IMG/VR virus record: IMGVR_UViG_3300025660_000448
Location: 1 to 63,072 of that record
Length of the DNA stretch: 63,072 bases
Source of the DNA: a virus
Reading direction: 5' to 3' (one strand)
Below are positions 1 through 19,904 of the stretch, in pieces; position 1 is the first letter of the stretch; every line of letters starts with the position of its first letter. Position numbers and translations under genes: made by a program. The notes under the pieces are model-generated. The model was given only the letters and a program-made list of their open reading frames with translations. It was not told the origin of the DNA and did not search any database.

Positions 1-978
1 TTATAACTTTTTAGCCATCACTTGTAATGCTTTACCAATAGCCTTTCCCATTAAAACTGGCACTGCATTTCCAAGTTGACGATATTTATCTCTAGTTTTT
101 CCTTCAATAATCCAATCATCAGGAAAACATTGTATACGTTTATACTCCTCTATACTCAGAGGTCTATTTTTTGATGGATGACAAAGTGTAGTTGCTCTTT
201 GCACTGGAGAAGTCAGCAATGTGGGGGACGGACGATTCCAACTAAGGCGTCGATAAAATGCTGTTAATCCACCGCTTTTAAGATTAGCATTACCCATTGC
301 TTTTTTATGGTCTTTTTTAGGTAAAGATTTCCAACATCCTCCTTCTGGTATTTTTGGCATAAACCTCCCTATCGAGTTGGGAAAATTTACCCATTCCCCT
401 TGGTCTTCAAGGTCAGCTATTGCATCTTCCAACGTTAGTAAACATGTATTTTTTATAGGAAATATCACATCACCATGTAAATTACCTATAAGCAAAAACC
501 GTTTTCTAGTCTGAGGCACACCATACTGTGAAGAATTGACTATTTCCCATTTACATTTATATCCGGCCTTCGTAAAACGACTAATCAACTCCCCTACTAT
601 CTTACTACTTCCATATGTAATTCCCGGTACGTTTTCCATGACGAAAAATGTAGGCTTTACATCTTCAACAATTTGTACAAAACCAAGCAATGCCGCTCCA
701 CGCTCATCATCTAAGAATTTCCTCTTCCCTATGGTACTAAATGACTGACAAGGAGGTCCGCCTACAATAACATTTACATGTTTTTCCCTTGCGAATTGCG
801 GCAAATTCTCTGAAAACACATTGTCAAAAATTATAGATTTTGGACGATTTGCCTGTATTGTTAGTTGGCATATTTTGTCTCGCTCCGCATATCCAACAAC
901 TTTAATTCCAGCCATCTCAAGTCCTAGGTCAAGCCCAAGACATCCAGAAAATAACGATAAAGCACGTAATTTAGGCAT
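1..978 (-). CDS. C5-cytosine DNA methyltransferase
   Basis: Transfers a methyl group from SAM to carbon 5 of cytosine in duplex DNA. The 325 residues show the family motifs in order: motif I near residues 7-20 (LSLFSGCLGLDLGLE), the catalytic PCQ loop in GGPPCQSFS near 75, ENVPGI near 116, QTRKRFLLIG near 156 and the C-terminal RQLGNAVPV. Length is typical of a complete Dcm-type enzyme, and both start and stop lie inside the window. It sits 57 bp downstream of a second methyltransferase and a probable restriction enzyme on the same strand, so it probably belongs to that modification system; a stand-alone anti-restriction role is also possible. The target site cannot be read from sequence. Confidence 0.93.
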   Translation of the reverse strand: MPKLRALSLFSGCLGLDLGLEMAGIKVVGYAERDKICQLTIQANRPKSIIFDNVFSENLPQFAREKHVNVIVGGPPCQSFSTIGKRKFLDDERGAALLGFVQIVEDVKPTFFVMENVPGITYGSSKIVGELISRFTKAGYKCKWEIVNSSQYGVPQTRKRFLLIGNLHGDVIFPIKNTCLLTLEDAIADLEDQGEWVNFPNSIGRFMPKIPEGGCWKSLPKKDHKKAMGNANLKSGGLTAFYRRLSWNRPSPTLLTSPVQRATTLCHPSKNRPLSIEEYKRIQCFPDDWIIEGKTRDKYRQLGNAVPVLMGKAIGKALQVMAKKL

Positions 979-1035
979 ATATGACCCTTTAAAGAACGAT
1001 TATCCAATTCAACGGGTCGTATATTACCAATTTTT

Positions 1036-1854
1036 TTACAACTGTTCAAGGTGTTTTTTAATTCTTTCTTGTGCTATCGCAGAATATTTTTCATCTAAAT
1101 CTATGCCAATATAATTCCTGCCAAGTTCTACCGCAGCAATCCCGGTCGTTCCGCCACCCTCAAATGGGTCAAGAACCAAGTCATCTTTGTCGGTGAATAA
1201 TTTAATAAAAAAAACTGGTAGGGATTTAGGGAACGCTGCTGGATGTTTTTTGTTTCCACATTCAGTAGCAAAATGCAACACATTAGTTGGATAAACTAGT
1301 TTCTTACCGACCCAATTTGACACATTTTTGCCAAACGAGCTACCAGATTTAGAATTATCTCTTTGTTTATCAGTCTTGCTTAAGTTTTTTAGACGACCTT
1401 CAGCCCAATCTCCAATTGGAACTCGCACGCTGTCTTGATTCATTTTGAATTTCTTTTGCAAATTAAACTGCAAACATCGTTCCCAAGAATCTCTAAAACG
1501 ATTAGGCCACTTTCCGGGGAAACAATTCTTCTTGTGCCACATCCATTCCTCCGTCCATAACCACTGTTTTTTTCGCATAGCTTGTATTAATTCTAAAACA
1601 TAAGTATGCCTTTCTCCAGAAACAACTTTTTCTTTGATGTTTATTATAAATGTGCCAGTAGGTTTTAAGACTCTTTTAATTTCTTCTGCTATAGGCAAAA
1701 ACCATTCTACATATTTATCAGCACATGGTCCAGAATATTGCTTTTTTCTTGCATCAGCGTATGGCGGAGATGTAATTACTAAATCTATAGTTTCTGAATC
1801 AACTCCTTTTAAAATTTGTAAGCAATCTCCAACATAATTTTCAATTTTATTCAT
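1036..1854 (-). CDS. Beta-class N4-cytosine/N6-adenine DNA methyltransferase
   Basis: SAM-dependent amino-methyltransferase of 272 residues. The catalytic motif IV comes first (TSPPYADARKK near residue 29) and the SAM-binding motif last (DPFEGGGTTGIAAVELGR near 234), the order of the beta class. TSPPY is commonest in N4-cytosine enzymes, but DPPY/SPPY enzymes of the same class make N6-adenine, so the product is left open. Its start overlaps the stop of the upstream nuclease-like gene by 4 bp (ATGA), which implies translational coupling, as expected for a restriction-modification pair. Confidence 0.9.
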   Translation of the reverse strand: MNKIENYVGDCLQILKGVDSETIDLVITSPPYADARKKQYSGPCADKYVEWFLPIAEEIKRVLKPTGTFIINIKEKVVSGERHTYVLELIQAMRKKQWLWTEEWMWHKKNCFPGKWPNRFRDSWERCLQFNLQKKFKMNQDSVRVPIGDWAEGRLKNLSKTDKQRDNSKSGSSFGKNVSNWVGKKLVYPTNVLHFATECGNKKHPAAFPKSLPVFFIKLFTDKDDLVLDPFEGGGTTGIAAVELGRNYIGIDLDEKYSAIAQERIKKHLEQL

Positions 1855-2624
1855 TTTATATCCATTATTTTTTTCATCCAGTTATCATTATCTTTTTTAT
1901 TTCCACAACTATTTTTTGCTATAGATTTCCATGCATCAATTGTTGATATAAAGATGTCACCACCATATACTTGCTCATATTCTTTCAATAATCTAACACA
2001 AGATAATTCAATCTCATTATTGAATATCTGTTCAAATTCTGTAGCTCCTACGGATGTTACATCTAAAATTTCTTGATAAAAATTCTCTTCACCATCAGTA
2101 ATAAGACACCAAAAATTCTGGCCACTAATTTGCACATCAGCATATTGAAGGTCTTTAGTTGGCGAATTACCACAACAAATACCCATAACTGATATTAAGT
2201 CATGGTTTGTGTCATTTTGATTTATAGTCTTTTTGGCCTTCTTAAATTGGTCTCCTTGCTTTGCTATACTTTGACTATTCCCCCATTTATCACTGCTTTT
2301 TATCGAAATTAGTAAACGACGTTTCCCTTTAAGTAAATCTAAATCAATGCCACTCATTCCTGTTTTTACATTTTCTCCATACGCCAAACTACAAACCTTA
2401 ATACTAATATCTTCAAAAAGCGAACCAAACTTAGTTTGGTTTGATTTTCCCATGAACCCATTAAGTGAATATTTTATTGCTTCTTTTGGACTACCACATA
2501 CAACAGAAGGAAGATATGGGTTTATCGTTAAATTTTTTATTCTTACCTCTTCTAATCGTTGCAATACTGATTTTCTAAATTTACATACTGCTACTCCGAT
2601 AAATTGTTTTATTTCGTTTTTCAT
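1851..2624 (-). CDS. Probable type II restriction endonuclease (PD-(D/E)XK, PmeII-like)
   Basis: A 257-residue protein whose middle carries a plausible PD-(D/E)XK core: an acidic strand in SGIDLDLLKG near residue 91 followed by LLISIKSSDKWGNSQ near 103, giving the D...(x)xK spacing of type II endonucleases. The IKS..WGNSxxIAK..xxFKKAKK stretch resembles the PmeII-like restriction enzyme family as I remember it; this is a recollection, not a search. A restriction role is supported by the 4-bp overlap with the methyltransferase immediately downstream. It could instead be a non-restriction nuclease. A sigma70-like promoter sits just upstream of its start. Confidence 0.55.
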   Translation of the reverse strand: MKNEIKQFIGVAVCKFRKSVLQRLEEVRIKNLTINPYLPSVVCGSPKEAIKYSLNGFMGKSNQTKFGSLFEDISIKVCSLAYGENVKTGMSGIDLDLLKGKRRLLISIKSSDKWGNSQSIAKQGDQFKKAKKTINQNDTNHDLISVMGICCGNSPTKDLQYADVQISGQNFWCLITDGEENFYQEILDVTSVGATEFEQIFNNEIELSCVRLLKEYEQVYGGDIFISTIDAWKSIAKNSCGNKKDNDNWMKKIMDIK

Positions 2625-2647
2625 ATAAAGTATTTTACTAAAAAAAC

Positions 2648-2676
2648 ATAATAAAGTCGAGAACTTAATTTTTCAA
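2648..2676 (-). promoter_or_regulatory. Sigma70-like promoter for the restriction-modification operon
   Basis: Read on the - strand: TTGAAA, a 17-nt spacer, then TATTAT, ending 24 bp before the ATG at 2624. The spacing is exactly optimal and the site points into the nuclease-methyltransferase operon. Confidence 0.5.
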
Positions 2677-2817
2677 TCATTAATTTTTATTTTTTTCTTT
2701 GGGACAAAATTAGAATAATCATTGTTTGGAAAATTTACAAAACAATTTTCAATACCAAATAAATTAATAGCATGATAATCATAATTCATAGCAGCAATGC
2801 TTTGTTATACATTTTTG

Positions 2818-3807
2818 TCAATTAGACTCAGTTTGTATCCTCTTATTTCTTATAAGTATTCTAAAATATGGGCACTTTCCATTGATCGACAAGTCCTTTT
2901 CATCATCCCCTTTTCTGAATTTAATTATTTCAAATTGATCGGGGTTAAATTTATGTAGGAATGTTATTGGTACCCCCATAGCTCCCTTGTAGTCTAATGG
3001 TATGTCTTTTGTCTTATTAACATTAATCCCATCATAATTATCATATTTCGGGTATTCAGTTTCGTTTCCAAAGTATTCCCTTGTAAGAACAATATCTTCG
3101 TGTCGTTTGTAAGTGTCTAAATTGGTTAGCCATAAGCAGTTATTAGGAGAAACTATTCTGTTTCCTAGACCATCAATCCGAGCCTCTGTTCCATAGAGTT
3201 CATAATGCTTAGGAACGATGAAACCAGAGACACCTCTACCAAGATTTATGCCCAACCACGCCTTATTTTCCTTGATTAGCTTGAAAATGTCTTTATAAGT
3301 TATCGCATTTACATTTCCAATTATTAAAAACTTTTTATCGTGTTTAACAAGTTGTTCAACATATTTCCTGAATAATGAAAACGGTGGATTAGTAACAACA
3401 ATATCTGACTTCTTCAGCAAATCAATGCTCTCCGAACTACGGAAATCCCCGTCTCCTTTAAAGTGCAAAATTTCAGGCACGCTTAGTTTATTTTTTTCAT
3501 CAGCTGTATTTCTATATTCAAAGAAAAAACCAGTTTCTTCACTCTCTTCACTAAATAAATCTCCCGATTGCTCTTTGTAGCAAGATGTTAATATCTTCTT
3601 GATTCCTAGATCTTCAAAGTTATCAGTAAAATATTTAAAGAAATTGCTTATTCTAGGGTCGTCACAATTGCAAAAAACAACTTTGTCTTTAAAGTGTGTT
3701 TTATAATGCTTCAATTCACTTTCAATATCGCAAAGCTGGGTGTAAAACTCATCACTTTTTGACTTCTTTGCTTTTTGCAATAATTGGTTTGTTGCGTTTC
3801 TTGCCAT
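2818..3807 (-). CDS. ecoRIM: Adenine-specific DNA methyltransferase, M.EcoRI family
   Basis: This 329-residue protein closely resembles M.EcoRI (326 residues), which methylates the second adenine of GAATTC. Recognisable stretches are the N-terminus MARNATNQLLQKAKKSKSDE, CNCDDPRISNFFKYF near 47, the catalytic VVTNPPFSLFRKYV near 136, IGNVNAITYKDIFKLI near 160 and the C-terminal KGDDEKDLSINGKCPYFRIL. It looks intact and full length. It lies 39 bp downstream of the remnant of an EcoRI-type endonuclease on the same strand, the same R-then-M order as in the EcoRI system. With the nuclease destroyed it would act as an orphan that protects phage DNA: GAATTC sites remain, for example at 9771, 10068, 28919, 31025 and 58965. 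Confidence 0.93.
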   Translation of the reverse strand: MARNATNQLLQKAKKSKSDEFYTQLCDIESELKHYKTHFKDKVVFCNCDDPRISNFFKYFTDNFEDLGIKKILTSCYKEQSGDLFSEESEETGFFFEYRNTADEKNKLSVPEILHFKGDGDFRSSESIDLLKKSDIVVTNPPFSLFRKYVEQLVKHDKKFLIIGNVNAITYKDIFKLIKENKAWLGINLGRGVSGFIVPKHYELYGTEARIDGLGNRIVSPNNCLWLTNLDTYKRHEDIVLTREYFGNETEYPKYDNYDGINVNKTKDIPLDYKGAMGVPITFLHKFNPDQFEIIKFRKGDDEKDLSINGKCPYFRILIRNKRIQTESN

Positions 3808-3846: not shown

Positions 3847-4119
3847 TCACTTATTAGTTGTAATCTGGGTAAATAAATCACTTCCCAATGCTTTAAGGGA
3901 AGATATGGAAACCTCAATCATAATTTTAAACATTTCTTTGACATTCCACTTTTCTCCACACCCTTGAGAGTATATTGATGCCGCCTGAAGCATAATTGCT
4001 TTATCTTTATACTTGACGACTTTATTTACACATAAATTTTTATTTATTGGCATTCCATAATTTGCAGATGTCAATCTATCTAATCTGTTTAACATTCCTG
4101 AATTGTATTCAAGATTTAC
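3847..4119 (-). pseudogene. C-terminal remnant of an EcoRI-type restriction endonuclease
   Basis: An open 82-codon stretch beginning at 4095 reads like the last third of R.EcoRI: LNRLDRLTSANYGMPIN, then KDKAIMLQAASIYSQG and SLKALGSDLF, each nearly matching my memory of the R.EcoRI C-terminus. The same frame continues past that ATG to 4119 with VNLEYNSG, also R.EcoRI-like, and then meets two stop codons where the GIY-YIG gene ends. The catalytic part of R.EcoRI (Asp91, Glu111, Lys113, and the Glu144/Arg145 recognition arm) lies upstream of this fragment in the family and is absent here. The piece is therefore nuclease-dead; whether the 82-residue peptide is made is unknown. Confidence 0.85.
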
Positions 4120-4886
4120 ACTTCTACTTCATCATGAAACGAGCCTAAATTTATATCTTTATGATTAAAATTAATTCTAGATTGCCATGTTTTGCCTTTT
4201 CTTTTTTTAACTCCTTTATATTTATTTTTAGGAGGTTTTAATCTTATTGCTTTGTTTTTTTTACAAATAGATTCTTGAGATTGTTTTCGTCCCATTTGAC
4301 TACGAGATATTTTTCTTTTTGTTTCTTCAGTATGTTTTCTTTTACCACCACTCTTTTTGCCCAAATTTCCTTCCGATATTTTTCTTTTTGTTTCTTCAGT
4401 ATGTTTTCTTCCCAATTGAGCTTTTCTTCTAGCTTCTCTTACACTATTGGGTGTTCCAAATTTTAAATATCTTTCTTTTTGAGATTTGCTTAATTTTAAT
4501 TTAGATTCATATGTCCAAACTCTAATTCTATTTGCGTTTCCTATTTTGAGTTTTGCTTCTTCAGTATGCTTTCTTCCTCTTGGACTTCCGCCCGCTGTTG
4601 GTTGTATATTATACTGATGTCCCCATACTTGGTCTATCCAAAACTGCTCTCTTTCATCTAATTTATTTTCATCTAAAACTTCTTCTAATAAATAAAACAA
4701 AAAATTAATTTTCTCATATTTATTCCACGCTGCTTGCAAATGTTTATTATAATGTTTATTGTTTACAAGAAGTGATTTATGTTCCATAAACCTTTGGTTC
4801 ATTCCTTTATTTTTACAAACTTGTCCAACATATATCTTTCCATTAATCTTATTTTTAATCGCATATATTCCTTGAATTTTTTCCAT
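4116..4886 (-). CDS. GIY-YIG homing endonuclease with NUMOD3 repeats and truncated AP2-like tail
   Basis: From ATG 4886 (MEKIQGIYAIKNK) the protein opens with a GIY-YIG nuclease domain: GIYAIKNKINGKIYVGQVCK, a downstream MEHKS.L helix and the catalytic-type Glu region EREQFWID. Several NUMOD3 DNA-binding repeats follow (HTEEAKLKIG, HTEETKRKISEGNLGKK, HTEETKRKISRSQMGRK), then YKGVKKRKGKTWQSRINF, which starts an AP2-like domain. That domain stops short at GSFHDEVEV, exactly where EcoRI-endonuclease homology begins in another frame, so the C-terminus is probably clipped. An upstream ATG at 4931 is in frame but would overlap the HTH gene more. It is a selfish DNA-cutting gene, now fused against the restriction gene. 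Confidence 0.85.
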   Translation of the reverse strand: MEKIQGIYAIKNKINGKIYVGQVCKNKGMNQRFMEHKSLLVNNKHYNKHLQAAWNKYEKINFLFYLLEEVLDENKLDEREQFWIDQVWGHQYNIQPTAGGSPRGRKHTEEAKLKIGNANRIRVWTYESKLKLSKSQKERYLKFGTPNSVREARRKAQLGRKHTEETKRKISEGNLGKKSGGKRKHTEETKRKISRSQMGRKQSQESICKKNKAIRLKPPKNKYKGVKKRKGKTWQSRINFNHKDINLGSFHDEVEV

Positions 4887-5037
4887 ATAATATTTTTTCC
4901 AAATCAGAAACATTGTATCTTCGATGCCCACCTAATGTTCTAACAGGGCAGAATTTACCAGACTTATCCCAATTCCTAAGTGTTGTTGTTGTTACTCCTA
5001 ATAATTCAGAAGCAGCTTTAATAGTTATAAGTTGCAT
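4855..5037 (-). CDS. MerR/excisionase-type helix-turn-helix protein
   Basis: A 60-residue protein made almost only of a winged HTH: TIKAASELLGVTTTTLRNWD, then TLGGHRRYNVSDLEKIL. The GGHRRY wing is typical of the MerR-like domains at the N-terminus of IS607-family serine recombinases and of excisionases. No recombinase domain follows; instead the gene overlaps the start of the GIY-YIG gene. A similar HTH gene precedes another nuclease-like gene at 17649. It may help target or regulate the neighbouring endonuclease, which is inference. Confidence 0.75.
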   Translation of the reverse strand: MQLITIKAASELLGVTTTTLRNWDKSGKFCPVRTLGGHRRYNVSDLEKILYGKNSRNICD

Positions 5038-12535: not shown

Positions 12536-12760
12536 ATGTTAAAAGAATTATACTCACAATACGGCGAAATAATGGTACAGATGGAAGTTCTTCAGGCTAG
12601 ATTGAATCAGGTAAAATCCGCAATCTTTGAGGAATTGAAACCTAAACAGGCAGAACAGGCAGAGCAGACTGAAGCAATGCTGGCACCACCCGAACGAGCA
12701 TCAGGATGTTGTCTTGAAACAAATGGTGTTTGCGGTGGCCCTCCAGCAGTAGAAAACTAA
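12536..12760 (+). CDS. Small hypothetical protein with Cys-rich tail
   Basis: Seventy-four residues: an N-terminal helix (LKELYSQYGEIMVQMEVLQARLNQV, heptad-like) and a C-terminal stretch with three Cys (GCCLETNGVCGGPP). It starts behind an AT-rich tract with TATACTATACTAA, a possible -10. Its stop codon overlaps the end of the opposite-strand duplicated guaB tail. Not recognised. Confidence 0.5.
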   Translation: MLKELYSQYGEIMVQMEVLQARLNQVKSAIFEELKPKQAEQAEQTEAMLAPPERASGCCLETNGVCGGPPAVEN

Positions 12761-12855
12761 ATTATAGTCCAATCTGAATTTTTTTGATATTCCGCAATGG
12801 TTCTAGAGTTCATATAACTCATAGAACTTCTAAGACCATTGCGGAATCGGTGTAA
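12757..12855 (-). pseudogene. Second, diverged copy of the IMPDH/GMP-reductase 3' end
   Basis: Directly after the TAG stop of the C-terminal fragment (12856-12858), and in the same frame, the DNA codes 32 more residues beginning LHRFRNGLRSSMSYMNSRTI and then a second TAG. They match the preceding C-terminal residues (QRFINGLRSSMSYLNAKTLD) at most positions. This is a tandem, non-identical duplicate of the gene's 3' end, likely left by recombination with another allele. Readthrough would give a longer protein but need not occur. Confidence 0.75.
12789..12847. repeat. 13-bp inverted repeat (stem-loop)
   Basis: Arms at 12789-12801 (ATTCCGCAATGGT) and 12835-12847 are perfect reverse complements. 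The loop holds a further short palindrome (GAGTTCATATAACTC). No T-tract follows on either strand, so it is not a classical terminator. It lies within the duplicated tail of the fractured gene. Confidence 0.7.
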
Positions 12856-13431
12856 CTAAACTATACAAATTATGGCATTATTCCTATACTCATCTAAAGT
12901 TTTTGCATTTAGATAACTCATACTACTTCGCAGTCCATTAATAAATCTTTGTATAACTGAATTTATAGATGGGCCTAAATCTACAAGATATTCCATACCT
13001 TCAACGTAAGTCGGTTTTTCTCCTTTATAATCCAACTGAGTAGAGTAAGAGGCCGCACCTCTAAACACTTTTTTAAGACGCCCATCTATTTTTACAACTC
13101 TTGCAGGACTTTGTGGACATTGAGCGAAGACGCCCCCTAGCATAGTTATATCAGACCACATAAGTGCTTTATTCATATCGGCAGGAGTTTTTATCCCTCC
13201 ATCAGATATCACAATAGCATCCCCAATTTTATTTTCATAAACCTCCATTAATGTACTTACCATTGGACGATAAATTCCCGTTTCAAATCTTGTCGTACAA
13301 GCAGAATTATGGACAACAATTTCATCTTCCACACAGAAAGAATGGTTGTTTTCTACTTCTAAATCATAAACGATTTCGCCTGTTGTGTTATATGAATCTA
13401 TTTTTTCTATTGGTATCAAGTCAAATTGCAT
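12856..13431 (-). CDS. guaB: Split-intein C-half fused to C-terminal part of IMP dehydrogenase/GMP reductase
   Basis: Residues 1-42 are an intein C-domain: IVYDLEVENNHSFCVEDEIVVHN with the terminal His-Asn needed for cleavage, followed by Ser as the +1 residue. The host extein then continues SACTTRFETGIYRP, the IMPDH/GMPR active-site loop with its catalytic Cys, and on through DGGIKTPADMNKAL and FRGAASYSTQ, both family motifs. Trans-splicing with the N-half encoded at 14403-15221 would restore a whole enzyme. The arrangement matches the fractured IMPDH genes with IMPDH-1-type split inteins described from ocean metagenomes. The start overlaps the homing-nuclease stop by 11 bp. Confidence 0.9.
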   Translation of the reverse strand: MQFDLIPIEKIDSYNTTGEIVYDLEVENNHSFCVEDEIVVHNSACTTRFETGIYRPMVSTLMEVYENKIGDAIVISDGGIKTPADMNKALMWSDITMLGGVFAQCPQSPARVVKIDGRLKKVFRGAASYSTQLDYKGEKPTYVEGMEYLVDLGPSINSVIQRFINGLRSSMSYLNAKTLDEYRNNAIICIV

Positions 13432-14353
13432 TGTAATATTCCTGTAAACTATCTAAAACTCGTAAGTTTCCTTCTTTGACATCTTTTTCCCATATATGAA
13501 ACAATTTAAAATTATGTTTTTCTGCAAATTCAATCTTAGTCTTATCTTTATTTTTGTTTTTCATTTGCATGTCATTAAATTCTTTATATATCTTCGGATT
13601 ACCATGCCAATAATCACCTTGAACTTCCAATAAGATTCTTTTAGATTTACACCCGAAATCATATTGTTTATAATCTAATATAACAGAATATTCAAAATCA
13701 TTCAAGCCTCTTTTGATTAATTCATCTTTTACAATTTTTTCTAATTTGTTAATTTTATATTTCTCATGTTTAGTAGCTGCAACCTTTCCTGCTTTAGACC
13801 TTAATGCCTTATATTTTTCCGGGTCTTTTCTAAACAGTTTTTTTTGACTATTAGAAAATAATTTAGAACGAACGACCTTTTCTTCTTTAGTTAAAGACGC
13901 CTGATATACTCTATTTTTTTCTGCTATTCTATCTAAAATACATTGAGGATGCTTTTTGCCATAAAAAGGATTTTTTTCACCTTTAAATTTCCCCTTTAAA
14001 CTTTCAGATAGCTTTCTCAAAGATTCCTTCGTATGTTTTTTACCATAAAAAGGGCTTATGTTACCTTTATTTTTACTTCCTATTTTATCTTTTGTTTCTT
14101 GTGTATGTTTTTTACCATAAAAAGGGTTTCTGTTACCTAAGCTATTGCAATGGCAACATCTAGGAATTTTATTTATTAAATACCAACTAAGAGTTTTTAC
14201 AAAACGAAGCTTTTTACAATCTGGACATTCTGCCTCTATTTTTTTTATATCTTTAAATGTTATTTCAACACCATTTTCTAACAAATAAACATTTTCCCTT
14301 TTTCTAGAATTTTTACTTACAACTCTTGAACCGTTTAAAAATATATGATGCAT
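13421..14353 (-). CDS. VSR-like (EDxHD-type) homing endonuclease between split-intein halves
   Basis: 310 residues. The N-terminus carries a CPDC/CCHC zinc-binding pair (ECPDCKKL, RCCHCNS), then three NUMOD3 DNA-binding repeats (NPFYGKKHTQETKDKIG, SPFYGKKHTKESLRKLS, NPFYGKKHPQCILDRI). The C-terminal ~100 residues resemble the very-short-patch-repair fold: FEYSVILDYKQYDFGCKSKRI, LLEVQGDYWHGNPK, and HNFKLFHIWEKDV. This domain order and position between split-intein halves are those of the nuclease family described with fractured phage genes (Dassa et al. 2009). A ribosome-binding site AGGAGA precedes ATG 14353. It presumably drives spread of the split-intein allele. Confidence 0.85.
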   Translation of the reverse strand: MHHIFLNGSRVVSKNSRKRENVYLLENGVEITFKDIKKIEAECPDCKKLRFVKTLSWYLINKIPRCCHCNSLGNRNPFYGKKHTQETKDKIGSKNKGNISPFYGKKHTKESLRKLSESLKGKFKGEKNPFYGKKHPQCILDRIAEKNRVYQASLTKEEKVVRSKLFSNSQKKLFRKDPEKYKALRSKAGKVAATKHEKYKINKLEKIVKDELIKRGLNDFEYSVILDYKQYDFGCKSKRILLEVQGDYWHGNPKIYKEFNDMQMKNKNKDKTKIEFAEKHNFKLFHIWEKDVKEGNLRVLDSLQEYYNAI

Positions 14354-14402
14354 AAATTTCTCCTATATAAATATTTATGCATCAAATCAGGATTAACCAT
14401 GG

Positions 14403-15221
14403 CTATTCTTTGATTTTTACAAGAAAAAAGTCTTCAGACAAGTCCTCTGCTGACACCCATTTTGCGTACTTTTCTAAATTAATTTTATTGACTTTATCTT
14501 TATCATTTTTATGAACAACATAAAACTCATGATTTTTTGTACATTTAATTCCATTTACATCTATTATTGTTTCAATTTCTTCCCTTGAAGAAACTCCGAC
14601 CACCTTTTGGTAACTTGAATCATGAGTTAAAACTTCTTCTCCTATCTTAATTTTTTCAATTGATTTTCTACCATTTTTAGTTTTTACTTTTGTACCACTG
14701 ATAAAACACCCGCCAGCTATTCCTACTCTAATGGCGTGAACACCCAATTGAGATAATTCATTAAACATTTTCGATGAATGCACATTGCCAACTGTCAAAT
14801 AACAATCCCCAACTATCTCTTTGGCTACATTTATCACCCTTCTGGAAGCGCCATTAGCACAATCAATTAAAAAAGAATTACAACCATGTTTTTTTAAAGA
14901 TGTATACCTTTCTTCCCAGTCATTTAGTGGAATAGCACATCCGGCATACCCACCATTTTCAACTACATGATTATAATCTTTAATTTGTTCTTTTACAGAT
15001 TGAAAACGATGTATAAATCCATAACATTTCAATCTAGATAATTCTAAAGCCATTTTGCCATCACACACATCTGGCATAGGGCTTCCAATCATTGGGTAAA
15101 CATAGTGTCCACAAAATTCTACTAGAGGCTCTATATCAGAACGACTGTTTATTTCTGATATTACGTCAGATACAATTCCAATATCATCATACGACAATGA
15201 ACTTTTTTTTTCTATACGCAT
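14403..15221 (-). CDS. guaB: N-terminal part of IMP dehydrogenase/GMP reductase fused to split-intein N-half
   Basis: Residues about 1-170 are the TIM-barrel N-part of IMPDH/GMPR without CBS domains (LSYDDIGIVSDV at the start; NSFLIDCANGASRRVI; RVGIAGG at the end). At Gly-Gly the intein begins: CFISGTKVKTKNGRKSIEKI (block A, catalytic Cys1) and, about 50 residues on, GIKCTKNHEFYVV (block B with TxxH). It ends with a stop after about 102 intein residues, with no endonuclease insertion. The enzyme acts in guanine nucleotide synthesis or salvage. It overlaps the upstream receiver-domain gene by 10 bp. Confidence 0.9.
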   Translation of the reverse strand: MRIEKKSSLSYDDIGIVSDVISEINSRSDIEPLVEFCGHYVYPMIGSPMPDVCDGKMALELSRLKCYGFIHRFQSVKEQIKDYNHVVENGGYAGCAIPLNDWEERYTSLKKHGCNSFLIDCANGASRRVINVAKEIVGDCYLTVGNVHSSKMFNELSQLGVHAIRVGIAGGCFISGTKVKTKNGRKSIEKIKIGEEVLTHDSSYQKVVGVSSREEIETIIDVNGIKCTKNHEFYVVHKNDKDKVNKINLEKYAKWVSAEDLSEDFFLVKIKE

Positions 15222-15667
15222 TCTATATCTCCGTCATCCTCAGACTCATAAATATAAAAACTATCACAATCAAAATCTGTATCTTCGCAATCCTTAAACT
15301 CACTAGAGAGGCTATCATAATCCAACTCTGAAAATGGGGTATACTCTGCCTTATATCCCGCAGTATTTAACTTTTCTACCATGGACTGAGCAGCATCATA
15401 GTTAAAAGAATGAACAACAAATCTTTGGACATCAGGTTTGTTTTTAACTATCCACCTAACAACTTCCATGCCCGTTTCTTTGTTGGATGGGTCAACGTAA
15501 ACTAGCCCTCCCAAATCATGGTCTAAAAACACACATTTAGCAGTTTCTTCTAATTCAAAAAGCAATTGTATCATTTCTTCCGCTGTTGCCGCTAAAACAG
15601 CAGATGGTATATTACTTTTAAACTCGAACAGACGTTTAGGGTTATCATCTAAAAATAAAACTTTCAT
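15212..15667 (-). CDS. Cyclic-phosphate-processing receiver-like (cREC) protein
   Basis: A 151-residue CheY-like fold: VLFLDDNPKRLFEF holds the acidic pair, VFLDHDLGG the phospho-acceptor-type strand, and FVVHSFNYDAAQSMVEKL a conserved His. The DHDLG and HS.N motifs distinguish the cREC family predicted to act on cyclic phosphates from ordinary two-component receivers. No kinase or output domain is present. In phages such proteins are proposed to take part in RNA end processing or counter-defence, which is inference here. Translated in an operon with the DnaQ-type exonuclease (3-bp gap) and the fractured guaB. Confidence 0.65.
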   Translation of the reverse strand: MKVLFLDDNPKRLFEFKSNIPSAVLAATAEEMIQLLFELEETAKCVFLDHDLGGLVYVDPSNKETGMEVVRWIVKNKPDVQRFVVHSFNYDAAQSMVEKLNTAGYKAEYTPFSELDYDSLSSEFKDCEDTDFDCDSFYIYESEDDGDIECV

Positions 15668-15670
15668 TTA

Positions 15671-16222
15671 TTAAGCCTCAATAGGAAATTTTTTTCTTAT
15701 AAGTTTTACAATAACTTCAGCATCTTCTAACGCTGTATGTGCTGGTTCGCCTTCTATCCCCGCTCTCTTCATACATTCTAAAGTATCTGGTATCTTTATG
15801 TCCCCCGGTTCCCAATAAAGGATTGCAGGGTCTAAAACACGACTTGATATATGTAGATTAAAACGAGGAAGCTTTCTGAGGAATTGTAAATCAAAAGCGC
15901 CAAAACATTTTCCGGCTGCTGTTATTGACCCTTTTACCCCATTTTCTTCCAACCAACCTACAAACTTTTTTCCAAAATGTTTAGGTTCAATATATGAATA
16001 TGGCTTTTCTTTTGTAGCAATACGACGAAGAATAACAGGGTGCATAGACAATGCATATGGATGTCCTATAAGTTCGTCATAAGTAAAATAAGTATGAAAC
16101 CTAGGTAATTCTTCAATGGGCTTCTGGTCCATAAGGTCATCTATAATTGCCCCAACTTCCAAAATCTGGTGAGTGTCGTGGTCAATTCCTGTTGTTTCAA
16201 TATCTATCGAAATTATTTTCAT
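15671..16222 (-). CDS. DnaQ-like 3'-5' exonuclease (DEDDh)
   Basis: 183 residues with the DEDDh exonuclease signature: SIDIETTGIDHDTHQILEVG at the N-terminus (Exo I, Asp and Glu), GKCFGAFDLQFL near 108 (Exo II Asp), and HTALEDAEVIVKLI near 164 (Exo III His and Asp). Length and lack of other domains fit ExoX or stand-alone proofreading-type nucleases. It may trim 3' ends in DNA metabolism, or proofread for the family A polymerase at 37437, whose own exonuclease motifs are not obvious. Confidence 0.85.
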   Translation of the reverse strand: MKIISIDIETTGIDHDTHQILEVGAIIDDLMDQKPIEELPRFHTYFTYDELIGHPYALSMHPVILRRIATKEKPYSYIEPKHFGKKFVGWLEENGVKGSITAAGKCFGAFDLQFLRKLPRFNLHISSRVLDPAILYWEPGDIKIPDTLECMKRAGIEGEPAHTALEDAEVIVKLIRKKFPIEA

Positions 16223-16231
16223 AGGTTATCC

Positions 16232-17068
16232 TTAGTAATCAGTAGTAATAGTCAAATGGAAATTATTATCACATGATTTCCTGTTTAGCCACAGCCAATA
16301 ATCTACAACACTTGGATTCTTTCCAGATTTTTCACAGAGCGTTTTACACGCAGCAATCATAGATGCTCGTATCTCACACTCCATAAGAGAACCAGAAGGA
16401 ATTAATATTCCTTCATCTATAATATTTTTCAATTCATCACTATACTGCAAAATCCCCATGTGTTCTAACATCTTGGGAATCTGATAATCGGCGGGAACTG
16501 GCAGCATGTCAACTTGTGATTTAAACATGTCAGATTTTCTTGCAACTTGCATAAAGAATAATGATGCTCGTTTCAAAAACATATCATTTGCATAACCCGG
16601 ATAAACAAGAACACTTTCTAAACAGTCCTCTAAATCATCTCGGGCATCATATAATTGGACCGCTACCATTTTGTAATCTGTATATAATAACTCCATCAAA
16701 TGAGATGAACGTTCGCTCATAAGAGGGAACCTACTTAAAGATAATGCTGAGATAAGGTTCGGTATAACATCTACTCCACTCGGGTCATATACCTCATTTA
16801 AAACGTCATACATAGCCCATGCGTTAGCACCACATGGTCTTATCTTAGAAGACCCATACCAATAACAATAATTAATTGCACCAGCTATAAGTTCATATTC
16901 TAACAACTCAATATCATTACTGACTTTCGGAGGAAGAGCTTCATTTTTTATTTCCACTTCCTTCAATTTGTCAATCCAAGATTCAATTGCTAAATTACTA
17001 ATTTCTACATATTTTGGATTCTTAGTAAACTGACCGACTAAATCCCATACGTTTTCTAGAGCTTTCAT
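16232..17068 (-). CDS. Queuosine-salvage-like N-glycosidase (Qng1/DUF2419 family)
   Basis: 278 residues. The C-terminal half matches my memory of the DUF2419/Qng1 queuosine 5'-phosphate N-glycosidase family: MLPVPADYQIPKMLEHMGIL, YSDELKNIIDEG, PSGSLMECEIRASMIAACK and VDYWLWLNRKS, with a near-terminal FHLT. The mid-protein AINYCYWYGSS resembles the family's N-F/Y-C-F/Y-W helix. The enzyme releases queuine for tRNA modification; a phage copy could tune tRNA-Q or a 7-deazaguanine base. It is coupled by a 4-bp overlap to the upstream small gene. Family identity needs a profile search. Confidence 0.55.
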   Translation of the reverse strand: MKALENVWDLVGQFTKNPKYVEISNLAIESWIDKLKEVEIKNEALPPKVSNDIELLEYELIAGAINYCYWYGSSKIRPCGANAWAMYDVLNEVYDPSGVDVIPNLISALSLSRFPLMSERSSHLMELLYTDYKMVAVQLYDARDDLEDCLESVLVYPGYANDMFLKRASLFFMQVARKSDMFKSQVDMLPVPADYQIPKMLEHMGILQYSDELKNIIDEGILIPSGSLMECEIRASMIAACKTLCEKSGKNPSVVDYWLWLNRKSCDNNFHLTITTDY

Positions 17069-17648: not shown

Positions 17649-17831
17649 ATGATAAAAATAAAATGTGAAAAATACTATACTCCACAAGAAGTAGCTGAAA
17701 AATTTAACGTGAGCACAAATACCGTTGCTAGGTGGAGAAAAAATGGAAAATTATCTGCCCATAACATTAGCGAAAGAAAATTTATGTATTCTGAAACAAG
17801 TATAGAAAAATTCATCACGGGGAACAAATGA
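17649..17831 (+). CDS. Excisionase/MerR-type helix-turn-helix protein
   Basis: Sixty residues, essentially one winged HTH: YTPQEVAEKFNVSTNTVARW followed by RKNGKLSAHNISERKFMYSE. It overlaps the next gene by 4 bp (ATGA) and lies on the + strand amid - strand genes, so the two form an inserted unit. Compare the HTH gene at 4855, also coupled to a nuclease. Repeated GATAA words upstream (17609-17645) may hold its promoter or an operator. Confidence 0.7.
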   Translation: MIKIKCEKYYTPQEVAEKFNVSTNTVARWRKNGKLSAHNISERKFMYSETSIEKFITGNK

Positions 17832-18934
17832 TAATAAATGGAAAAGAATACTTAAAACCTAAAGAAGAGCACCGTCTGACAAAAAGCAGTATAAACAAAA
17901 GAATCCTATCTAAAAATATACAACTAATAGGCAGCTTCAAAGGGGTCCATACAACATCTACATTCAAATGTTTAGTTTGCGGACATACAAGAAATATGGC
18001 AACAGTAAATGTTTTATATGAAAATTACAAATGCAAACAATGCAAACTAAACAAAGAAAAAGAAAATGTTAATAATAAACTTATGTCCAAGTCATTTAAA
18101 TTAACAGAAACATTTAAAGGAAACACAAAAAAACAAAATATAACATGTATGAAATGTAATTATATATTTCATGTAGCTCCAAGGAGAATTTTAGAAAGCG
18201 ACAGAAAATGTCCTAAATGCTCTACAAGGGCTGCTAGAACTCAAAAACGATTTGAAAATAAAATAAAAAAATTAAAAATAATAATGCTGTCTGCTTATAA
18301 AAATGGAAAAACTAAAGTAAAAATAAAATGCACAAAATGTAACACAATATCACAACCTACCCCAACTAACCTATTAAGACCGGGAGCCGGTTGTCGCCAT
18401 TGCTCGATAATTATACCATTAAATATTGCTAAAAAAAGATTATCGAAAAAGAAAATAGACATTCTCCAATATATTAGCTTCTCTGAAAAAGCTCTGTTGC
18501 GATGTGAGAAATGTCAATATATTTGGAAAGCGTCCCCAGACCAAATCTTTCATACCTCTGGATGCCCTGTGTGTAACGCTAGAAAAAACGAGAAATTGAC
18601 ACTTAAATACCTAAAAGAAATGTTAAAAAATATTACTATTGAATATCAATATAGCGTAAAATATGATATTAAAAAAAGATTTATTATAGATTATGCTTTT
18701 AAAACAAAAAATAAACAATATTACGTAGAATACAATGGGGTACAACACTATAAACCAGTTAAATTTTTTGGTGGCGAAAAAAGATTTAAAAAACAAAAAT
18801 CAAGAGATGAAAATCTTATGAAATATTGTATAAATAATAATATAATATTGATAGAAATAGATGGAAGAAAATATACAGATGATAAAATTAAGACTTACTT
18901 AAAAAATAAACTTTCTTCCTATAATTTAATCTAA
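17828..18934 (+). CDS. Zinc-ribbon PD-(D/E)XK-like mobile endonuclease
   Basis: 368 Lys-rich residues. Four or five CxxC zinc-ribbon units come first (FKCLVCGHTRN, YKCKQCKLN, ITCMKCNYIFH, RKCPKCSTR, IKCTKCNTISQ, LRCEKCQYIW, CPVCNARKN). The C-terminal ~100 residues look like a restriction-like nuclease core: FIIDYAFKTKNKQYYVEYNG (D...ExN), VQHYKPVKFFGG, and IILIEIDGRKY. That architecture occurs in free-standing homing-type nucleases. Its orientation against neighbours and its HTH partner suggest a mobile insertion. Very AT-rich codon use. Confidence 0.65.
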   Translation: MIINGKEYLKPKEEHRLTKSSINKRILSKNIQLIGSFKGVHTTSTFKCLVCGHTRNMATVNVLYENYKCKQCKLNKEKENVNNKLMSKSFKLTETFKGNTKKQNITCMKCNYIFHVAPRRILESDRKCPKCSTRAARTQKRFENKIKKLKIIMLSAYKNGKTKVKIKCTKCNTISQPTPTNLLRPGAGCRHCSIIIPLNIAKKRLSKKKIDILQYISFSEKALLRCEKCQYIWKASPDQIFHTSGCPVCNARKNEKLTLKYLKEMLKNITIEYQYSVKYDIKKRFIIDYAFKTKNKQYYVEYNGVQHYKPVKFFGGEKRFKKQKSRDENLMKYCINNNIILIEIDGRKYTDDKIKTYLKNKLSSYNLI

Positions 18935-19827
18935 AGTAAACTTTCTAAATATGCCTTGCGTTGACGAACCTTTTCTTTTTTGCCTTCTGGCATATCTTCC
19001 TCTGCCAATAAGGTGTCACAAGCTTGCACAAAGAAAGGTAAGGCATCTTCGGTATTATAAACTAAATCTTCAGGATTTCTATTTTTTGTCATATTAATAA
19101 AACCCTTAAATTCATCAAAACAACTTCCGTAAATATGAAAACTAGAAGCTATATGAATGTATTCTCCAACATCAACACCGACCTGTTCCGCTACCATTTT
19201 TTGAAGTTCGGTTAGAGCAAATGCATTAAAGAAGGCACCACGATATGCGTCATTACTTCTAAAATCGACTGTCATGTTAAGTTTATCTTTTCCGTTTTCT
19301 CTTTGAACCCTAAACCATACCCTTTGAAGACATGCTGGGTCAGAAATGCCTAAATCTTTCCATACTTTCCACGTTACAGCCTGAGCACGTCTAGTATATC
19401 CATTTTGTTTAAGCAAATCTACACATTTATCTATTTGATTAATTATCGTTTCTTTAGGAGAAGAACTTCCAGTTAGAGCACCATATTCTACATCAGCAAT
19501 AGTCTCAGTTACATTATATTCAAATAATCTTTCGTGATAAGTGTATTCCCATTTTCCAGCATCAGGGTCTATCCAATGGTTATGAACTCCGTACAACATT
19601 TCTGAGCGGTATTTTTCTAAATCGTCCAAAGAACCGGGAAATGCACGATGTATTCTAGGTTCTGCCATTGGGTTTTTAACATGAATAAGGGCGGTAACGT
19701 CCCGGCTATTTGGGTCGTTTTCTTTATCATATTCAGTAGGGAAATTCTCGCCCTCTTCCCAACAAGCTAAAACAGCCTTTTCCCATGCTACAGGTAATGT
19801 ATCTTCTACAATGTGTATTGATTTCAT
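18931..19827 (-). CDS. thyA: Thymidylate synthase / pyrimidine hydroxymethylase family protein
   Basis: Start at ATG 19827 (MKSIHIVEDTLPVAW), giving 298 residues. Motifs of the ThyA fold: DPACLQRVWFRV near 165 with the nucleophile-type Cys, VDFRSNDAYRGAFFNAFAL near 185 (the RS.D...G.PFN segment), and HIASSFHIYG near 220 (the GD.HIY segment). It would methylate dUMP, or hydroxymethylate dUMP or dCMP to make a modified base; the deciding residues are uncertain. A promoter lies immediately before the ATG with almost no leader. Its stop overlaps the nuclease gene at 17828-18934 tail to tail. Confidence 0.75.
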   Translation of the reverse strand: MKSIHIVEDTLPVAWEKAVLACWEEGENFPTEYDKENDPNSRDVTALIHVKNPMAEPRIHRAFPGSLDDLEKYRSEMLYGVHNHWIDPDAGKWEYTYHERLFEYNVTETIADVEYGALTGSSSPKETIINQIDKCVDLLKQNGYTRRAQAVTWKVWKDLGISDPACLQRVWFRVQRENGKDKLNMTVDFRSNDAYRGAFFNAFALTELQKMVAEQVGVDVGEYIHIASSFHIYGSCFDEFKGFINMTKNRNPEDLVYNTEDALPFFVQACDTLLAEEDMPEGKKEKVRQRKAYLESLL

Positions 19828-19833
19828 AAAAAG

Positions 19834-19862
19834 ATTATATCTTAAACCAAATTGAATTACAA
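19834..19862 (-). promoter_or_regulatory. Sigma70-like promoter for a leaderless thyA transcript
   Basis: On the - strand: TTGTAA, a 17-nt spacer and a consensus TATAAT, which ends just 6 nt before the ATG at 19827. Transcription would start at or next to the A of the start codon, and no Shine-Dalgarno sequence can be placed. This suggests a leaderless mRNA. Confidence 0.5.
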
Positions 19863-19866
19863 AACA

Positions 19867-19904
19867 AAAACCCACTTAAATCATTTTTTAAGTGGGTTTT
19901 TTAT
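19867..19904. terminator. Rho-independent terminator (bidirectional)
   Basis: A perfect 14-bp stem (19867-19880 with 19887-19900, core AACCCACTTAAA) and 6-nt loop. T-tracts follow on both strands. It separates the operon at 20089-21224 from the thyA promoter. Confidence 0.85.

What the first reader, a model, noticed from the sequence alone, without database searches (positions are those of the whole stretch)
12757..15221. Fractured IMPDH/GMP reductase gene joined by a split intein, with homing nuclease in the gap
Seen: Cys1 block A and TxxH block B at the end of one gene; block F/G ending VVHN then Ser at the start of the other; intein sits in the active-site loop (GIAGG / SACTTR). Known: the arrangement with a VSR-like nuclease matches the fractured genes of Dassa et al. 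2009. This copy gives full local context and a diverged split intein for protein engineering.
Basis: partly seen in the sequence, partly recalled or inferred. Interest (0 to 1): 0.82.

Follow-up and report, generated by a model that had tools for sequence, protein, structure and literature searches.

The report
Phage enzyme gene split by intein
A phage carries a nucleotide-metabolism enzyme gene broken in two, with a DNA-cutting "homing" gene in the gap and a split self-splicing intein predicted to rejoin the two protein halves; the arrangement is already known, but this copy and its relatives show the package moving between distantly related enzymes.

Summary
The finding is real. On the minus strand lie an N-half (14403-15221: 171-aa IMPDH/GMPR-superfamily extein plus 101-aa IntN), a homing endonuclease (13421-14353) and a C-half (12856-13431: 42-aa IntC plus 149-aa extein). 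All class-1 intein catalytic residues are intact, and the split falls two residues before the catalytic Cys. It is a new, diverged member of the "fractured gene" kind (Dassa 2009; IMPDH-1), with an EDxHD/VSR-fold nuclease.

Corrections: the spliced enzyme would be 320 aa, 35.4 kDa (not ~42).

Added: about 18 distinct viral loci share the layout. The window's cassette (IntN, nuclease, IntC) is closest to L017's (51-67% identity), yet the exteins are only 24-37% identical and the trees conflict (AU p=0.003), so the cassette moved between distant enzymes. One relative deleted the nuclease but kept the split; another (L045) appears fractured twice. Splicing, cutting and homing are untested. A known kind, with informative evolutionary detail.

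The parts
14709..15221 (-). N-extein, 171 aa: IMPDH/GMPR superfamily N-terminal part, ends ...VGIAGG
   Evidence: PF00478 E=4e-18; model matches IMPDH structures, Z up to 18.6
14406..14708 (-). IntN, 101 aa, CFISGTKVKT...FFLVKIKE; Cys1, block B TKNH; stop TAG 14403-14405
   Evidence: Hint_2 E=1e-7; aligned with IntN of relatives, Cys1, Thr and His invariant
13421..14353 (-). Homing endonuclease, 310 aa: CxxC...CxxC zinc-finger-like part, three NUMOD3 motifs, C-terminal EDxHD/VSR-fold nuclease domain
   Evidence: NUMOD3 E=2e-16; fold match to I-Bth0305I and VSR; D232, E243, H250 invariant
13306..13431 (-). IntC, 42 aa, MQFDLIPIEK...YDLEV...IVVHN; penultimate His and terminal Asn present; start overlaps the HEG end by 11 nt
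   Evidence: Intein_splicing E=6e-4; aligned with relatives; overlap
12859..13305 (-). C-extein, 149 aa, starts SACTTR (Ser+1, catalytic Cys at +3); stop TAG 12856-12858
   Evidence: PF00478 E=8e-25; catalytic Cys and Thr aligned with E. coli GuaB and GuaC
12757..12855 (-). Second, diverged copy of the last 32 codons plus stop (LHRFRNGLRSSMSYMNSRTIAEYQKNSDWTII*), in frame after the C-half stop; probable remnant of a replaced guaB-like gene
   Evidence: 17/32 aa identical, 25/32 similar, 60/99 nt; second codon positions most conserved

Best explanation
A phage guaB/guaC-like gene is fractured into two cistrons by a class-1 split intein. After translation IntN and IntC associate, Cys1 and Ser+1 carry out the acyl shift and trans-esterification, the terminal Asn cyclises, and the two extein halves are ligated into one 320-aa enzyme. 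The split lies in the catalytic loop (GG|SACTTR), so neither half should be active before splicing. The gap cistron encodes an EDxHD/VSR-fold homing endonuclease that most likely cuts intein-free guaB/guaC alleles at that conserved loop, so that repair copies IntN-HEG-IntC as one cassette. Shown by computation: anatomy, intact motifs, nuclease fold, recurrence, cassette/extein incongruence. Inferred: splicing, cutting, homing, and the tail copy as a scar of gene replacement.
For: Domain matches; junction and catalytic residues conserved across relatives; same N-half/HEG/C-half order in about 18 distinct viral loci; nuclease fold; window and L017 share the cassette (IntN 58, HEG 51.5, IntC 67% identity) but not the exteins (24 and 37%), intein and HEG trees pair them with strong support while the extein tree rejects the pairing (AU p=0.003); DNA identity falls within about ten codons of the intein ends; window proteins find no homologue in the L017 locus apart from the fractured gene's parts.
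Against: No experiment; splicing, enzyme activity, cleavage specificity and homing are not shown. The window extein is a long branch, so its tree position is unsure although the pairing with L017 was tested. The C-half lacks the C-terminal stretch that several relatives have.
Confidence: 0.9

Rival explanations
1. A contiguous intein with a nested endonuclease in one ORF that only looks split because of sequencing or assembly frameshifts.
For: Contiguous IMPDH inteins exist at the same site in other contigs (L035, L038, L041, L019, L040) and in actinobacterial genomes.
Against: Three ORFs in three frames with their own starts and Shine-Dalgarno-like sequences and an 11-nt overlap; the same split in many independent assemblies, also where no nuclease is present.
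Confidence: 0.03
2. The halves are decayed: the phage has lost the enzyme and the intein no longer splices.
For: The C-half is shorter at its end than several relatives, and a tail copy follows its stop.
Against: Both halves are open throughout; Cys1, TxxH, Asp of block F, His-Asn, Ser+1, and the enzyme's Cys and Thr are all kept. Other members (L023, L038, L041, L048) also end early.
Confidence: 0.07
3. About the tail copy only: 12757-12855 is an in-place tandem duplication of the gene's last 99 nt (perhaps kept as a hairpin between convergent genes), not the remnant of a replaced gene.
For: The two units are exactly 99 nt each including the stop, adjacent and in frame; the second forms a strong hairpin, z=-5.8, between convergent genes.
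Against: Second codon positions are the most conserved (25/33 against 16/33 at third), amino-acid changes are mostly conservative, synonymous sites are saturated and there is no stop or frameshift, as between two selected genes rather than a drifting copy. No other locus examined has such a duplicate.
Confidence: 0.25

Closest known systems
IMPDH-1 split intein and the fractured genes of Dassa et al. 2009 (NAR 37:2560, doi 10.1093/nar/gkp095)
   Same: Two cistrons joined by a split intein with a homing endonuclease gene in the gap (arrangement from my knowledge of the paper; title confirmed through citing papers); IMPDH-1 is listed with IntC of 42 residues, Cys1, Ser+1, class 1 (PMC11766414), as here.
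   Different: Diverged: about 45% (IntN) and 42% (IntC) identity to IMPDH-1 as recalled from memory (a lead only); different extein; tail copy behind the C-half.
I-Bth0305I and VSR endonuclease (EDxHD / very-short-patch-repair fold)
   Same: The C-terminal nuclease domain has the same fold: Foldseek E=7e-4 to 3r3p, VIA Z=13.0 to 1cw0 and 12.3 to 3r3p.
   Different: About 20% identity; carries NUMOD3 motifs and a CxxC...CxxC part; activity and target untested.
Contiguous IMPDH (GuaB) inteins of actinobacterial genomes (L074-L078, L084)
   Same: Same insertion point...VHN|SICTTR.
   Different: One ORF, not split; found in the cellular genome collection.

Membership tests
Fractured gene with split intein (Dassa-type) | Two separate cistrons, N-extein-IntN and IntC-C-extein, at one insertion site | tested here: met
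Fractured gene with split intein (Dassa-type) | Free-standing homing endonuclease gene of VSR-like type in the gap | tested here: met
Fractured gene with split intein (Dassa-type) | Protein trans-splicing yields the ligated protein | not testable with these tools
   needs co-expression
Class-1 intein | Cys1, block B TxxH, block F Asp, block G His-Asn, nucleophile at +1 | tested here: met
   C..., TKNH, YDLEV, VVHN|S
EDxHD / VSR homing endonuclease | VSR fold with conserved acidic and His residues | tested here: met
   Z=13.0 to 1cw0; D232, E243, H250 invariant in 13 homologues
EDxHD / VSR homing endonuclease | Site-specific cutting of the intein-free allele | not testable with these tools
   needs purified nuclease
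IMP dehydrogenase (GuaB) | Catalytic Cys and Thr in the active-site loop | tested here: met
   SACTTR aligned with E. coli Cys305 and Thr307
IMP dehydrogenase (GuaB) | Arg-Tyr pair of the mobile flap (E. coli 401-402) | tested here: inconclusive
   aligned residues are Pro-Thr, but the flap aligns poorly
IMP dehydrogenase (GuaB) | Groups with GuaB in a tree | tested here: inconclusive
   long branch outside the GuaB group, support 92/91
GMP reductase (GuaC) | Groups with GuaC and has its catalytic Thr and Glu | tested here: inconclusive
   Thr and Glu aligned, but GuaB has both too; tree position outside the GuaC group on a long branch

The most novel reading that the evidence does not exclude
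The window preserves the scar of a homing or replacement event between distant phages: a fractured gene arrived, and the 3' end of the replaced resident guaB-like gene was left behind its stop codon. Together with its relatives it shows that IntN-HEG-IntC moves as one cassette between IMPDH and GMP-reductase lineages.
Probability: 0.5. Interest if true: 0.6.

Novelty: new member of a known kind. Interest (0 to 1): 0.5.

Why it matters
Fractured genes are the source of some of the fastest split inteins used in protein engineering; this is a diverged natural pair with full local context. The loci collected here form a natural series at one insertion site (contiguous, split with nuclease, split after nuclease deletion, possibly doubly split), so models of how split inteins arise and spread can be tested. 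The conflict between cassette and extein trees suggests that a conserved active-site loop lets one cassette cross between paralogous enzymes.

Tried and rejected
Close relatives of the spliced extein in viral contigs: none found. TAG recoding or suppression to explain the in-frame tail: no suppressor tRNA found, ordinary TAG stops. Tail hairpin as an intrinsic terminator: no T-run after the stem, and not listed by the scan. Relatives of the tail among phages: one weak hit at E=0.01, the rest at chance level. Solved homologue of the nuclease by sequence: none convincing; the fold search succeeded instead. Intein sequence against PDB: gp41-1 only at E=0.005. Reading Dassa 2009: not held. First piece of a doubly fractured gene in the L071 record: no match in it. 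More doubly fractured loci: besides L045 and the single-site L049 record, the new loci examined carry the intein at site a only. The joined intein (IntN plus IntC) was not folded, because only unaltered proteins may be submitted.

Full report
OBSERVATION. The window is a virus record of 63,072 bases. On the minus strand three ORFs follow each other: 14403-15221, 13421-14353 and 12856-13431. The first is an IMPDH-superfamily N-part (PF00478, E=4e-18) that runs into a Hint domain (Hint_2, E=1e-7); the last begins with an intein C-part and continues as the IMPDH C-part (E=8e-25); the middle one has three NUMOD3 motifs (E=2e-16). Joining the exteins at GG|S gives 320 aa, 35.4 kDa, not the ~42 kDa proposed. 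The intein parts are 101 and 42 aa.

REALITY OF THE SPLIT. The three ORFs are in different frames, each is preceded by a Shine-Dalgarno-like sequence, and the nuclease stop overlaps the C-half start by 11 nt. TAG, which ends both halves, is a normal stop in this phage and no suppressor tRNA was found.

RELATIVES. Scans of viral contigs and profile searches gave about 18 distinct loci with the same order N-half, nuclease, C-half and the same split point (window, L017, L009, L010, L011, L034, L042, L024, L036, L026, L023, L033, L058, L043, L025, L128, L130, L133; in L034 and L043 the nuclease ORF is interrupted or partial). Others have the split without a nuclease (L013, L016, L021, L027, L039, L047, L048), and some have one contiguous ORF (L035, L038, L041, L019, L040). 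In the cellular genome collection the same scan found IMPDH inteins at this site only as contiguous forms in actinobacterial records; the scan is pattern-based, so absence of split forms there is weak evidence.

NUCLEASE. A model built from 13 homologues (pLDDT 86) matches the I-Bth0305I catalytic domain (Foldseek E=7e-4) and VSR endonuclease (Z=13.0, rmsd 2.4 over 110 residues). D232, E243 and H250 are invariant in the alignment. The EDxHD/VSR assignment rests on fold and conserved residues, not on activity.

MOBILITY. Segment by segment, the window's nearest cassette is that of L017: IntN 58%, nuclease 51.5%, IntC 67% identical, while N- and C-exteins are only 24% and 37% identical. Intein and nuclease trees both pair window and L017 with strong support. 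The extein tree puts L017 with GMP reductases and the window elsewhere, and rejects their pairing (AU p=0.003); that pair was chosen after seeing the cassette identities, not the extein tree. DNA identity falls within about ten codons of the intein ends, and window proteins find no homologue in the L017 locus apart from the fractured gene's own parts. A second conflict is L025/L035, whose exteins are GuaB-like while their inteins group with those of guaC-like loci. The best reading is that IntN-HEG-IntC spreads as a unit between distant members of the superfamily, using the conserved active-site loop. Homing is the likely mechanism but was not shown.

NUCLEASE LOSS. L027 and L033 have 92% and 90% identical DNA on either side of the gap, but L027 has lost most of the nuclease gene, keeping about its last 70 nt, while the split intein remains.

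TAIL COPY. Directly after the C-half's stop, in frame, 12757-12855 encodes LHRFRNGLRSSMSYMNSRTIAEYQKNSDWTII*, aligned end to end with the gene's own last 32 residues: 17 identical, 25 similar, 60/99 nucleotides. Second codon positions are the most conserved and synonymous sites are saturated, as expected between two selected genes rather than a drifting duplicate. No other locus examined has such a copy. The simplest reading is a remnant of a replaced guaB-like gene; a tandem duplication is not excluded. The segment also forms a strong hairpin (z=-5.8) between convergent genes, without a terminator-like T-run.

ENZYME. The catalytic Cys and Thr are present in SACTTR. There is no room for a CBS domain (320 aa against 488 for E. 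coli GuaB). The window extein is a long branch joined to neither GuaB nor GuaC, so the substrate is undecided. Because the intein interrupts the loop two residues before the catalytic Cys, activity should depend on splicing (inference).

COMPARISON WITH THE KNOWN. The arrangement is that of the fractured genes of Dassa et al. 2009 (title and reference confirmed through citing papers; the paper itself is not held). IMPDH-1 is listed with IntC of 42 residues, Cys1, Ser+1 (PMC11766414). Identity to IMPDH-1 as recalled from memory is about 45% and 42%, a lead rather than a test. This is a new member of a known kind; what it adds is the context, the tail copy, and the evidence on how the cassette moves.

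Noticed in passing
L045:1-2398 (IMGVR_UViG_3300035698_024753): An IMPDH-like gene that appears fractured twice: end of a VSR-like nuclease, IntC(a)-middle extein-IntN(b), a second nuclease (EVKS motif, PD-(D/E)xK-like), IntC(b)-C-extein. The first piece lies off the contig. L049 has the site-b split intein alone.
   Followed up: partly
L027 versus L033: Near-identical fractured genes, one with the homing nuclease and one in which it was deleted down to its last ~70 nt while the intein stayed split.
   Followed up: yes
window 12789-12847: Strong hairpin (19-nt arms, 89% complementary; z=-5.8) inside the tail copy, between convergent genes, without a T-run.
   Followed up: partly
window 4116-4931 and 17828-18934: Two further putative homing nucleases: GIY-YIG with NUMOD3, and an HNH/treble-clef-type protein whose end abuts the convergent thymidylate synthase gene at 18931-19875.
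   Followed up: no
window 1-3807: Restriction-modification-like cluster: C5 and N6/N4 DNA methylases, an EcoO109I-type restriction enzyme and an EcoRI-type methylase, in a phage record.
   Followed up: no
window 15212-17068: Genes upstream of the fractured gene: cyclic-phosphate processing receiver domain, an RNase T-type exonuclease and a queuosine salvage protein.
   Followed up: no
L058 and L039 C-halves: The residue after the intein is Cys rather than Ser (VHN|CVCRTR, VHN|CLTTVQ) at the same site.
   Followed up: no
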